A stretch of 64,000 bases of DNA from Halobaculum sp. MBLA0147. GTDB taxonomy: Archaea; Halobacteriota; Halobacteria; Halobacteriales; Haloferacaceae. The DNA is taken from NCBI RefSeq assembly GCF_041361345.1, contig NZ_JBGKAD010000001.1, positions 2,604,001 through 2,668,000 on the forward strand. The letters run 5' to 3'. The notes under the pieces were generated by a model. It worked only from the letters and a program-made list of their open reading frames with translations, had not been told where the DNA came from and ran no database searches. How positions within the stretch are numbered: the stretch's first letter is position 1; every line of letters begins with the position of its first letter. Below are positions 9,235-64,000 of the stretch, in pieces. Both the position numbers and the translations under genes were made by a program.

Positions 9235-10686
9235 GTGAAGCGGCTGGTGCTCGGGGCTGGCGAGACCGGGACGGACGTGGCAGAGGCGTGTCGCCGTCGA
9301 CCGGGAGAGACGCGTGTCGTCTCGCCCGACGAGGGACACGTCGAGACACTCCGCGAGGCCGGGGTGACGGCGACGCTCGCCGACCCGACGGACCCGGACA
9401 CGTACCCGTCGACGGCAGAAGTGGTCGTCGTCGCCGACCCGGACCCGGAGACGGCCGTCGCCGCCGCCGAGACGGCTCGCGAGGCGTTCCCGGACGCAAC
9501 ACTGGTCGTGTCGGTGCCGTCGACGGCCGACGACGAGGAGCGCGAGCGACTGCTGGCGCTCGCGGACCGGACGGTCGACCGTCGGCGCGCGTTGACCGAC
9601 GCCGTCCGAACCGTGACGGACGGCGAGCGACCGCGGCGTCTCCGGCGCCTGTTGGCGACGCTGCGGTCGGCGCCGGAGCCGCTGGCGGTCGTCACACACG
9701 ACAATCCGGACCCGGACGCGATCGCGGCCGCGATGGCACTGGTGGACCTCGCCGAGCGAGTCGGGACGGAGGCGGTGGCCGGCTACACCGGGAAGATCGC
9801 CCACCAGGAGAACCGCGCGCTGGTGAACCTCCTCGACGTGGACCTCGAACACCTCGGGGGCGTCGACGTGACGGAGGCGTACGGCTCCGTCGCACTCGTC
9901 GACCACGCCGTCCCGGGCGTCAACGACAGTCTCTCGCCGACGGTCGAGCCGCTGGTCGTGATCGACCACCACACGCCCGAGGACGGTGTCGACGCGCCGT
10001 TCGTCGACGTGCGGCCGGAGATCGGGGCGACGGCGACGATGCTGACGGAGTACGTGGAGACGATGGGGATCGAACCCCGCCGGGACGTGGCGACGGCACT
10101 GACGTACGGAATCAGAGTGGACACGAGAGACTTCACGCGCGGCGTGACGCGGGCGGACTTCGAGGCGGCGGCGGCGCTCGTCGAGTACGTGGACACCGAC
10201 CTGCTCGACCGCGTCGAGTCGCCCAGTGTCTCCGCCGCGGTGTTCGAGGTGGTGGCGGCGGCGATCCGCAACCGCACCGTCGAGGGTGACGTGGTCGCCT
10301 CCTTCGTCGGGGAACTCCCGGATCGAGACACGCTCTCGCAGGCGGCCGACCGACTCCTCACGATGGAGACGGTGACGGTCGCGGTCGTGTACGGCTACCA
10401 CGACGGAACCGTCTACGTCTCCGGACGGGCACGTGGGGCAGACGTGAACCTCGGCGAGGCGCTGCGGGACGCGTTCGGGAGCGTCGGCTCGGCGGGTGGC
10501 CACGCGAGTATGGCCGGCGCGCAACTGGACTTGGGGATTCTCGGGGAGACGGACGATCCCGAGCAGTTGCGGTCCGTGCTAGAGGAGGTCGTCGCAGACC
10601 GGCTGTTCGACACGCTCCCCGGGACGCGCCGTCCGTCGACGGCCGACGGACCGTGGTCGCCGACCGTCACACCAGGCGGGGAGTGA
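9235..10686 (+). CDS. DHH-family phosphoesterase with N-terminal NAD-binding-like domain
   Basis: A 483-aa protein. Residues 1-100 (LVLGAGETGTDVAEAC) resemble a TrkA-N/Rossmann nucleotide-binding domain. Residues about 145-320 are a DHH phosphoesterase domain with its metal motifs VTHDNPDPDAIAAA, LVDHAVPG and VVIDHHTPE. The C-terminal part carries the DHHA1-type GSAGGHASMAGAQLD. Families with this layout hydrolyse small nucleotides or oligonucleotides such as nanoRNA or cyclic dinucleotide products; the substrate here is not known. Start GTG 9235 precedes the conserved glycine motif. The frame is open far upstream, but that part overlaps the receiver-PAS gene. Confidence 0.85.
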   Translation: MKRLVLGAGETGTDVAEACRRRPGETRVVSPDEGHVETLREAGVTATLADPTDPDTYPSTAEVVVVADPDPETAVAAAETAREAFPDATLVVSVPSTADDEERERLLALADRTVDRRRALTDAVRTVTDGERPRRLRRLLATLRSAPEPLAVVTHDNPDPDAIAAAMALVDLAERVGTEAVAGYTGKIAHQENRALVNLLDVDLEHLGGVDVTEAYGSVALVDHAVPGVNDSLSPTVEPLVVIDHHTPEDGVDAPFVDVRPEIGATATMLTEYVETMGIEPRRDVATALTYGIRVDTRDFTRGVTRADFEAAAALVEYVDTDLLDRVESPSVSAAVFEVVAAAIRNRTVEGDVVASFVGELPDRDTLSQAADRLLTMETVTVAVVYGYHDGTVYVSGRARGADVNLGEALRDAFGSVGSAGGHASMAGAQLDLGILGETDDPEQLRSVLEEVVADRLFDTLPGTRRPSTADGPWSPTVTPGGE

Positions 10687-10757
10687 TCGACCGTGTCCGA
10701 CGAAGTGTGACACGTCGTTCACGCAGGACTCATTACCGCGCCGCTCGACCGACGACC

Positions 10758-11120
10758 GTGAGCGACGACGGTGTCGACCTGACGGACTTCGCCGACGCGC
10801 CGTCCGACGCGGACGACGAGCGCCGCGAGAGCGACGGCGCGTCCGAGGGAGACGACACCGTCGAGACCGACGGCGCGGCCGAGAGAGACGACACCGCCGA
10901 GAGCGACGGCGACACGGCGCCCGATACTACGGAGTCGGACACAGACGCGGACGAGGAGTCCGACCCGGCGGTCGACCCGGAGACGGTCTCCCCGGTGACG
11001 GGGACGTTCGCGTCCGGGCCGGACGAGCGGACGTGTGCCCGCTGTGAGACGGCGGTGCGGACGCTGTGGCACGACGCGGACGCCGACGGCTACGTCTGTG
11101 CCGACTGCAAGGAGTGGTGA
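10758..11120 (+). CDS. acidic haloarchaeal zinc-ribbon protein
   Basis: A 120-aa protein. About 80 residues of Asp/Glu/Ser/Thr-rich, probably disordered sequence precede a compact C-terminal zinc ribbon with two CxxC knuckles (TCARCETAVRTLWH and YVCADCKEW). Small proteins with this design are common in Halobacteria and uncharacterised. Start GTG 10758 lies about 24 nt after a cattacc box, consistent with leaderless transcription. The acidic region contains repeated ERDDTxExDG-like units. Confidence 0.75.
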   Translation: MSDDGVDLTDFADAPSDADDERRESDGASEGDDTVETDGAAERDDTAESDGDTAPDTTESDTDADEESDPAVDPETVSPVTGTFASGPDERTCARCETAVRTLWHDADADGYVCADCKEW

Positions 11121-58160: not shown

Positions 58161-58370
58161 GGCGACGGCAAGTGTGGTGACGGCAGGCGTAGCGACGGCA
58201 AGTGTGGCGACGGCAAATGTGGTGACGGCAAGTGTGGTGACGGCAGGCGTAGCGACGGCAAGTGTGGCGACGGCAGGCGTAGCGACGGCAAGTGTAGCGA
58301 CGGCAAGTGTGGCGACGGCAAGTGTGGCGACGGCAGGCGTAGCGACGGCAAGTGTGGTGACGGCGGGTGT
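58161..58370 (+). repeat. 15-bp minisatellite, 14 units of two types
   Basis: Unit type K is ggcaagtgtggcgac-like and type R is ggcaggcgtagcgac-like. The order is K R K K K R K R K K K R K and a variant last unit. The unit length is a multiple of three, so all six frames stay open; in one frame it reads as (S/G)DGKC and GDGRR pentapeptides. It fills most of the 57954-58409 gap ahead of the glycosyltransferase gene. Nothing else is seen in that gap. Confidence 0.9.
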
Positions 58371-59446: not shown

Positions 59447-59875
59447 TCAGTAGCCGTACTCGACGGCGTAGCCGTTCATCCGCGCGAACTCGACGATGTG
59501 CTGGCACAACTCTATCGTGCGGTCGTCCCCGACCGACAGTCGCCCTGTCGTCGCGAGGGTGTCACGAGCGCTCTCGAGCCACTCGTGTAGTGCGTCGAGT
59601 CCCTCGGGGTCGCCGATCGTGTTGCCGTCGTCCGCGTGTGCGGAGAGAACGTCCCGAGCCGGTCCCTCGGCAGCAGCCACTACCCGTCTCGTCGGCTTCT
59701 TCCAGATTCCGAACTTTCCTCCCTCTTCGAGTGCGTCGACGAAGCTGTCGAACTCGACGGGATCGTGGAGAGACTCGTCGTACTCGGAGTGATCGACGTG
59801 GTACTCGTAGAACCTGCGCCCCGTCTGGAGCGTCCGTTCTTGTTCTGGAACGACGAGTGAGACGATCGTACCCAT
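59447..59875 (-). CDS. small protein, family shared with the right-edge array (divergent copy)
   Basis: A 142-aa protein with no recognised family but clear relatives at 63034, 63489 and 63947. Shared landmarks: TGRRFYEYHV near residue 20, a Lys-rich or aromatic centre (FGIWKKPTRRVVAAAEG), LHEWLESARDTLA, and the C-terminus TIELCQHIVEFARMNGYAVEYGY. It is predicted helical with one invariant Cys-Gln-His. This copy is more GC-rich than the array members. Convergent with the glycosyltransferase gene (17-bp gap). Function unknown. Confidence 0.75.
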   Translation of the reverse strand: MGTIVSLVVPEQERTLQTGRRFYEYHVDHSEYDESLHDPVEFDSFVDALEEGGKFGIWKKPTRRVVAAAEGPARDVLSAHADDGNTIGDPEGLDALHEWLESARDTLATTGRLSVGDDRTIELCQHIVEFARMNGYAVEYGY

Positions 59876-63033: not shown

Positions 63034-63462
63034 TCAGTAGCTGTAGGCCACATCGTAGCCGTGTTCGAGCGCGAACTCGATCATGTGCTGACACGTGGCG
63101 ATGGTCTGATCAGTGGGGTCGGACAGTTCGTCGTTGGCGGCCAGTGTGGTCCGTGCACTCTCGAGCCACGCGGAGAACGCCTCCATCCCCTCGCGGTCGG
63201 TGAATCGGTGTCCGTTCTCCGTGTGTTCGTCGAGTAGATCCGGCAGTGTGTCTGGAGCAGCCTCGATGATTGTGTGAGGTATTTTCTTGTAGATCATAAA
63301 TAGACCACTCTCCCTCATACGACGTATAAAGTGTTGGTACGGAGGGTAGCCCTCGATAGAGTCGAGATGCTCCGACCGTTCAACATGATACGTATAAAAC
63401 TGTCTGCCCATTTCGGCTGTCTCTTTATTCGCAGGCACTTCGAGTGAGAGTCCAGATCCCAT
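63034..63462 (-). CDS. tandem array member 3 of unknown ~142-aa family
   Basis: A 142-aa protein (MGSGLSLEVPANKETAEMGR...). It shares with the neighbour at 63489 the start MGSxLSLEVPA, FYxYHVExSEHLDS, FMIYKKIPHTIIEAAP, DREGMEAFSAWLESAR and the end TCQHMIEFALEHGYDVAYSY. It looks cytoplasmic, helical, with no signal or membrane segment. The region is visibly AT-richer than the genome around it. Last of at least three genes read leftward with 26-bp gaps, convergent with metX. Function unknown. Confidence 0.8.
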   Translation of the reverse strand: MGSGLSLEVPANKETAEMGRQFYTYHVERSEHLDSIEGYPPYQHFIRRMRESGLFMIYKKIPHTIIEAAPDTLPDLLDEHTENGHRFTDREGMEAFSAWLESARTTLAANDELSDPTDQTIATCQHMIEFALEHGYDVAYSY

Positions 63463-63488
63463 CGTTCACGCTCGTGCTGATCGGTGAT

Positions 63489-63920
63489 TCAGTGACTATA
63501 GACGACGCTGTAGCCGTGTTCGAGAGCGAACTCGACCATGTGTTGGCACTTGGAGATCGTTTGGTTGTTTGCTCTTACCAAGTCTTCCTTGCCGGTTGTC
63601 GGCGACTCCCGAGCACTTTCGAGCCACGCCGAGAGCGCTTCCATTCCCTCACGATCAGTGAACTCGTACCCGTCTTCTGTGTGTTCTTTACATACTTCCC
63701 ACAGCGGCTCCGGAGCAGCCTCAAAGATCGAATGTGGAATCTTCTGATAGATCATAAATCGGTTACGCTCTCTTATTCGACGCGTAAACTGCTCGTAGGG
63801 GAGATGGTCGTCAACAGAGTCGAGATGTTCGGACTGTTCGACGTGATACTCGTAGAACCGCCTTCCTGTCTCGACTGTCTGCTCGTCGGCTGGCACTTCG
63901 AGTGAGAGTGCTGATCCCAT
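63489..63920 (-). CDS. tandem array member 2 of unknown ~143-aa family
   Basis: A 143-aa paralogue (MGSALSLEVPADEQTVETGR...) of the next gene, with about half of residues identical by eye. Differences cluster in the middle (PEPLWEVCKEHTEDGYEF) and in the linker before the C-terminus (GKEDLVRANNQ), while both ends are conserved. The 26-bp gap to the following gene equals the gap to the previous one, pointing to tandem duplication and a single transcript. Confidence 0.8.
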   Translation of the reverse strand: MGSALSLEVPADEQTVETGRRFYEYHVEQSEHLDSVDDHLPYEQFTRRIRERNRFMIYQKIPHSIFEAAPEPLWEVCKEHTEDGYEFTDREGMEALSAWLESARESPTTGKEDLVRANNQTISKCQHMVEFALEHGYSVVYSH

Positions 63921-63946
63921 ACCTTACCCTTGTGTCGACTGACGGT

Positions 63947-64000
63947 TCAGTAGCTGTAGACGATGTCGTAGTCGTGTTCGAGGGCGAACTCGATCATGTG
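63947..64000 (-). CDS. tandem array member 1, C-terminal end only
   Basis: Seventeen codons and a TGA read as HMIEFALEHDYDIVYSY, the exact C-terminal signature of the family. The rest of the gene lies beyond the window. The 26-bp spacing to the next gene matches that between members 2 and 3. Confidence 0.75.
   Translation of the reverse strand, partial: HMIEFALEHDYDIVYSY

What the first reader, a model, noticed from the sequence alone, without database searches (positions are those of the whole stretch)
63034..64000. Tandem array of at least three genes of an unrecognised ~142-aa family
Three consecutive minus-strand genes encode paralogues with conserved ends (MGSxLSLEVPA; CQHMxEFALEHGY) and variable middles, separated by identical 26-bp gaps, in DNA clearly less GC-rich than the rest. 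The array continues off the window. Tandem, diversifying small cytoplasmic paralogues of foreign composition recall immunity-gene arrays next to toxins, or defence-associated expansions. I do not recognise the family.
Basis: partly seen in the sequence, partly recalled or inferred. Interest (0 to 1): 0.7.

Follow-up and report, generated by a model that had tools for sequence, protein, structure and literature searches.

The report
Archaeal toxin with triple immunity array
Just beyond the window edge sits a gene built like the toxins that salt-loving archaea use against neighbours, and the three look-alike genes in the window are almost certainly its antidotes, of a family no database searched describes yet.

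Summary
The array is real. It holds exactly three 142-143-aa paralogues on the minus strand, 62-70% identical, with two 26-bp gaps of different sequence, in DNA of 53-56% G+C against about 72% around it. Its upstream end lies just outside the window. There it abuts a 526-aa gene (TGA followed directly by ATG) with an N-terminal eCIS_core/DUF4157 domain and an unannotated C-terminal domain. The genome has 16 such genes. Their heads are homologous in all 120 pairs, but their C-termini differ; some are Pfam toxins (GH-E nuclease, BURPS668_1122 deaminase) followed by ankyrin or SUKH immunity genes. In 391 genomes of the class, the array's C-terminal domain occurs in four. In each, a member of the 142-aa family lies directly downstream, including two cases where the domain tips a giant protein. 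The toxin is tentatively a PD-(D/E)XK-like nuclease. The kind of system is known (Zhang 2012; Zachs 2024); the toxin and immunity families appear new. Oddly, the held genome lacks the contractile-injection sheath and baseplate that every other toxin-rich relative sampled has.

The parts
63034..63462 (-). Third (distal) immunity-like gene of the array, 142 aa (immC)
   Evidence: ORF; 70% identical to the toxin-proximal copy; confident alpha/beta model, pLDDT 93.7; no Pfam, NCBIfam, PHROGs or PADLOC family
63463..63488 (-). 26-bp intergenic gap between immB and immC
63489..63920 (-). Second immunity-like gene, 143 aa (immB)
   Evidence: ORF; 62-63% identical to immC
63921..63946 (-). 26-bp intergenic gap between immA and immB (same length as the other gap, different sequence)
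63947..64000 (-). 3' end of the first, toxin-proximal immunity-like gene (immA); the gene continues off-window to window-equivalent 64378 (L006:4947-5378) and abuts the 526-aa eCIS_core toxin-like gene at window-equivalent 64379-65959 (L006:5379-6959, P0001)
   Evidence: junction GGGTGAATGATG
59447..59875 (-). Orphan paralogue of the immunity-like family, 142 aa, with no toxin or toxin remnant beside it
   Evidence: 42% identical over the full length; GC3 0.78; tblastn of the toxin C-terminal domain finds no remnant nearby

Best explanation
The three genes are a homogeneous polyimmunity array for a polymorphic toxin. The toxin is the 526-aa protein encoded directly upstream. It has a shared N-terminal head carrying eCIS_core/DUF4157 (about residues 1-240) and an unannotated C-terminal tip of about 220-240 aa that is the presumed toxic domain, most likely a PD-(D/E)XK-like nuclease. 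Proposed action: the protein is delivered into neighbouring cells by a contractile injection system (as shown for DUF4157 proteins of Halogeometricum borinquense), the tip cuts nucleic acid, and the abutting 142-aa protein (immA) binds the tip in the producer and its kin to block it. immB and immC, diverged partly by recombination between the paralogues, would cover variants of the toxin carried by competitors. Shown here: gene order, head/tip modularity, co-inheritance of tip and immunity, mosaicism, low G+C. Inferred: toxicity, nuclease activity, neutralisation, delivery and the role of the extra copies.
For: (1) The toxin-like gene abuts the array, TGA followed directly by ATG, with eCIS_core at E=5e-28. 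(2) 16 genes with this head lie in the genome. Heads match in all 120 pairs, while the C-terminal part of this gene matches no other. Against the L043 gene the head is 86.5% identical in DNA over 728 nt, then identity collapses at about residue 240. (3) Sister tips are known toxin domains with known immunity types next door: GH-E nuclease plus ankyrin-repeat gene(s), BURPS668_1122 deaminase plus SUKH-1. (4) The tip profile hits 4 of 391 class genomes and the 142-aa family hits 6; all four tip genomes have the family directly downstream, chance overlap 1.6e-8 ignoring phylogeny. (5) In two genomes the tip-immunity pair is carried by a 1731-aa or 2174-aa protein instead of an eCIS_core head. (6) GC3 falls from 0.85 (head) to 0.62 (tip) and 0.60-0.71 (array). 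(7) immA and immC agree at 21% of two-state sites before nt 179 and 71% after, permutation p=0.0005. (8) Tip motif E-[FYI]-D followed by E-x-K, weak NERD matches in two related tips, tip profiles related at 96.5% probability. (9) Experimental precedent: DUF4157 toxins with downstream immunity genes in H. borinquense (PMC11566945).
Against: No toxicity or binding has been tested. The toxin tip has no annotated domain and its structure prediction failed (pLDDT 47). The catalytic lysine is missing in the G209 homologue. The held genome has no sheath and no Baseplate_J gene, so delivery by its own injection system is not supported. Why three copies exist is inferred from analogy.
Confidence: 0.88

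Rival explanations
1. The small proteins are not immunity proteins but chaperones or loading adaptors for the eCIS_core protein.
For: They abut the gene, and are small and acidic; effector adaptors also sit next to their effectors.
Against: An adaptor should follow the conserved head, but the family follows the variable tip: of 16 eCIS_core genes in the genome only one has it next door, and it accompanies the same tip on unrelated giant heads. Tandem diversified copies and orphan copies without a toxin fit immunity better.
Confidence: 0.06
2. An anti-phage defence or abortive-infection module with an effector and duplicated regulators.
For: Foreign composition and a patchy distribution.
Against: No PADLOC match for any component. 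The head belongs to a secreted effector class, the sister genes carry interbacterial-type toxin tips, and no other defence gene was recognised next to it.
Confidence: 0.03
3. A relic arsenal (compatible with the toxin-immunity reading): the strain has lost its injection system, and the toxin and array are kept passively or only as protection against armed relatives.
For: Sheath and Baseplate_J are absent in the held assembly while 16 of 16 other family genomes with strong eCIS_core matches have both. Orphan immunity genes exist.
Against: All sixteen eCIS_core ORFs are open with no stops inside and the array genes have dN well below dS, so selection has been acting. The assembly is 97.4% complete in six contigs and may lack a replicon. 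A WHD-AAA+ ATPase gene homologous to one in a relative's injection cluster is present.
Confidence: 0.2

Closest known systems
DUF4157 toxin-immunity pairs of the archaeal T6SS of Halogeometricum borinquense (Zachs et al. 2024, PMC11566945)
   Same: Haloarchaeon; DUF4157 protein with a closely linked downstream small gene; several copies scattered in the genome
   Different: Here the tip and immunity families are unannotated, immunity is in triplicate, and the held genome lacks sheath and baseplate genes
PVC-metallopeptidase polymorphic toxins and homogeneous polyimmunity loci (Zhang et al. 2012, PMC3482391)
   Same: Constant N-terminal PVC-metallopeptidase (now eCIS_core) head, variable C-terminal toxin, tandem paralogous immunity genes; the paper already notes such toxins in haloarchaea
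   Different: The 142-aa family matches no model in Pfam, NCBIfam, PHROGs or PADLOC; only three copies, below the paper's four for an 'extended' locus
Tandem esaG and tipC immunity paralogues of type VII secretion (Garrett et al. 2022, PMC9484751)
   Same: Strings of non-identical immunity paralogues with conserved blocks, diversified by recombination between copies
   Different: Unrelated family, archaeal, injection-system type head
CdiA-CT/CdiI E479 of Burkholderia pseudomallei (PDB 5j4a; PMC9086364)
   Same: Nuclease-fold contact toxin with a small immunity protein; chain B is the third-ranked structural match to the array protein (Z 4.7, 82 residues, 3.0 A)
   Different: Z under 5 and tied with unrelated folds; whether chain B is toxin or immunity was not established here; no sequence relation shown

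Membership tests
Polymorphic toxin system with eCIS_core/DUF4157 (PVC-metallopeptidase) head | Conserved N-terminal trafficking domain | tested here: met
   PF13699 E=5.2e-28, 97.5 bits against cut-off 22, in the 526-aa gene
Polymorphic toxin system with eCIS_core/DUF4157 (PVC-metallopeptidase) head | Same head joined to different C-terminal domains in paralogues | tested here: met
   Head similarity in 120/120 pairs; this tip matches no other; sister tips GH-E and BURPS668_1122 deaminase
Polymorphic toxin system with eCIS_core/DUF4157 (PVC-metallopeptidase) head | Immunity gene immediately downstream, co-inherited with the tip and not with the head | tested here: met
   Directly downstream in 4/4 genomes with the tip, on two kinds of head
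Polymorphic toxin system with eCIS_core/DUF4157 (PVC-metallopeptidase) head | C-terminal domain is toxic and is neutralised by the immunity protein | not testable with these tools
   Needs expression experiments
Homogeneous polyimmunity locus (Zhang et al. 2012) | Tandem, same-strand paralogues of one immunity family | tested here: met
   Three copies, 62-70% identical, 26-bp gaps
Homogeneous polyimmunity locus (Zhang et al. 2012) | For the 'extended' class only: four or more genes | tested here: not met
   The array ends at three
Effector of an archaeal contractile injection system (T6SS/eCIS) | DUF4157 domain | tested here: met
Effector of an archaeal contractile injection system (T6SS/eCIS) | Injection apparatus encoded in the same genome | tested here: not met
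   No Phage_sheath_1 or Baseplate_J in G000, while both ring in 16/16 other family genomes with strong eCIS_core matches; the assembly is only 97.4% complete
Effector of an archaeal contractile injection system (T6SS/eCIS) | Apparatus-dependent secretion | not testable with these tools
   Needs secretome comparison
PD-(D/E)XK nuclease superfamily (toxin tip) | Catalytic D...E-x-K motif | tested here: inconclusive
   E-[FYI]-D and E-x-K present in 4 of 5 homologues; the lysine is absent in G209
PD-(D/E)XK nuclease superfamily (toxin tip) | Fold or curated-domain match | tested here: inconclusive
   NERD only below cut-off and only in the related tips of G380 and G025; AF2 model of this tip failed, pLDDT 47
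Known immunity families (SUKH, Imm-, ankyrin and others in Pfam/NCBIfam) | Curated model match | tested here: not met
   No match for the 142-aa proteins above chance
Anti-phage defence system | Match to a known defence protein model | tested here: not met
   No PADLOC match

The most novel reading that the evidence does not exclude
The genome keeps a large (16-gene) DUF4157 toxin arsenal with immunity genes but has no contractile injection machine, so either these toxins leave the cell by another, undescribed route, or the strain lives on immunity alone among armed relatives. The toxin-immunity cassette itself moves between injection-type heads and giant TSP3-repeat proteins.
Probability: 0.2. 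Interest if true: 0.75.

Novelty: new member of a known kind. Interest (0 to 1): 0.5.

Why it matters
It adds an undescribed toxin tip and an undescribed immunity family to the little-known arsenal of archaeal weapons aimed at other cells. It shows in archaea two features known from bacteria: tandem immunity paralogues that recombine, and one toxin-immunity cassette used on two unrelated delivery heads. A genome with 16 such toxins and no visible injection machine makes a testable case for weapon loss with immunity kept, or for another export route.

Tried and rejected
Family libraries (Pfam, NCBIfam, PHROGs, PADLOC) gave nothing above chance for the 142-aa proteins. A scan of IMG/VR viral contigs found no relative, so the array is not an obvious virus gene. 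A genome-contig scan with the immunity alignment found nothing, and with the tip alignment only Haloferax elongans. The AF2 model of the toxin tip, with three sequences, is unusable; it was not fold-searched. PDB sequence searches with the tip and immunity profiles gave chance-level hits. The structural search with the good immunity model gave only weak matches: Foldseek best DMP12, E=0.034; VIA-align best YfbM (Z 5.2), DMP12 (Z 5.1), 5j4a chain B (Z 4.7). They are not used as evidence. No toxin remnant was found beside the two orphan immunity copies. The Phage_T4_gp19 search in G000 is uninformative because no control rang. Positive selection on the array was considered: whole-gene dN is below dS for all pairs, so it is not claimed.

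Full report
Observation. The window is G000:C1:2604001-2668000 of a six-contig, 4.29-Mb haloarchaeal assembly, 97.4% complete. Two full minus-strand ORFs (63034-63462 and 63489-63920) and the end of a third (stop at 63947) are present. Outside the window the third gene is complete and the array ends there: three genes, 142-143 aa, 62-70% identical. Both gaps are 26 bp but differ in sequence. Array G+C is 0.53-0.56 and GC3 0.60-0.71, against GC3 0.87-0.91 for metY, metX and an M20 peptidase on either side. Two further relatives exist in the genome: 59447-59875 in the window (42% identical) and one at G000:C1:1842166 (62%). Neither has a toxin or toxin remnant beside it.

What lies next to it. 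Directly upstream of the array, with TGA followed at once by ATG, is a 526-aa gene. Residues 161-237 are eCIS_core (PF13699, DUF4157), E=5e-28, with an HELAH motif; the C-terminal 240 aa have no Pfam match. The genome has 16 matches over the eCIS_core cut-off. Fetching all of them shows one plan: a shared head, a variable tip, and small genes abutting downstream, often tandem. Two related tips are GH-E nucleases (one tested by Pfam, the other 90% identical to it); beside one of them are three tandem ORFs, one of which was checked and is ankyrin-repeat. One tip is a BURPS668_1122 deaminase with a SUKH-1 gene. Most others have glycine-rich tips followed by a ~317-aa family. All 120 head pairs are similar; this gene's tip is similar to none. 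Against L043, the head is 86.5% identical in DNA over 728 nt and similarity stops at about residue 240.

Tip and immunity travel together. With profiles, the 142-aa family is found in 6 of 391 genomes of the class and the tip in 4. The chance overlap is 1.6e-8, ignoring relatedness. The G380 immunity homologue is weak (E=2e-6). In G209 and G380 the tip is the end of a 1731-aa or 2174-aa protein, the latter with TSP3 repeats. In a plasmid of Haloprofundus salinisoli (G025), a family member lies downstream of a 999-aa repeat protein with a related nuclease-like end, two small genes away. So the small gene follows the tip and not the head, which is what an immunity protein does and an adaptor would not. 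In G046 only a broken family fragment is left, near another eCIS_core gene.

What the toxin may do. Five homologous tips share E-[FYI]-D followed by E-x-K (lysine lost in G209) and a glutamine further on. The G380 and G025 tips match the nuclease-related domain NERD below cut-off, and their profile matches the tip profile at 96.5% probability. This points to a PD-(D/E)XK-like nuclease, but the structure model failed, so it stays a hypothesis. The immunity protein is modelled with high confidence (pLDDT 93.7) as a small alpha/beta protein without a convincing fold match.

How the array diversifies. immA and immC are alike in the last 60% and unlike in the first 40%: the share of two-state sites at which they agree against immB rises from 0.21 to 0.71 at nt 179 (permutation p=0.0005). 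This fits recombination or gene conversion between tandem copies, as reported for esaG and tipC (PMC9484751), although uneven constraint along the gene could add to the pattern. Whole-gene dN is below dS, so diversifying selection is not shown.

Delivery. In Halogeometricum borinquense, DUF4157 proteins are secreted in a contractile-injection-dependent way and several are toxins neutralised by the downstream gene (PMC11566945). In 119 genomes of the window's family, the 16 other genomes with strong eCIS_core matches (E below 1e-20) all have a sheath gene and Baseplate_J. The window's genome, with the most eCIS_core matches (16), has neither. It does have a WHD-AAA+ ATPase gene next to a toxin locus, like the one in the Haloferax elongans injection cluster, and two similar-looking ORFs beside two others. 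A missing replicon, a lost machine or another export route are all possible.

Verdict. The kind of system is known: PVC-metallopeptidase toxins in haloarchaea and homogeneous polyimmunity loci were described in 2012 (PMC3482391) and toxin-immunity function of DUF4157 pairs in 2024. The tip and immunity families are in none of the libraries searched. Novelty: new member of a known kind.

Noticed in passing
G000 genome, 16 loci (L006, L031-L045): Sixteen eCIS_core toxin-like genes but no Phage_sheath_1 or Baseplate_J gene in the held assembly, unlike all 16 other strongly eCIS_core-positive genomes sampled in the family.
   Followed up: partly
L032:320-3307, L035:5179-7986, L040:253-3138: Three similar long ORFs next to eCIS_core toxin genes; the one tested (L040) is a WHD-AAA+ ATPase like one in the Haloferax elongans injection cluster (L068:16380-18560).
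   Followed up: partly
L031, L033, L034, L036, L038, L041, L042 (e.g. L033:5387-5839): A conserved ~150-aa gene beginning MCSNDSPSEKDDG is divergently transcribed upstream of seven eCIS_core genes, with no family match in NCBIfam; role unknown. A possibly diverged version lies upstream of the toxin at L006:7217-7596.
   Followed up: partly
L031-L040 downstream genes; L068:3729-9223: A ~317-aa family without Pfam or NCBIfam match follows most glycine-rich-tip eCIS_core genes, is often duplicated, and occurs in the Haloferax elongans injection cluster; a likely second undescribed immunity family.
   Followed up: partly
L047:8713-9517 and L068:4547-5659: Headless toxin cassettes carrying only part of eCIS_core plus a different tip, sitting behind a complete toxin-immunity pair; they look like stored or displaced tips.
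   Followed up: no
L006:9497-9569, 9672-9694: tRNA-Arg (CCT) gene whose last 23 nt are repeated 124 bp downstream, followed by a low-G+C patch (9896-10820); possible integration scar.
   Followed up: no
window 58161-58364: Tandem 15/30-bp minisatellite (6.8 copies of 30 bp) at the 5' end of a glycosyltransferase-like ORF, probably upstream of its true start.
   Followed up: no
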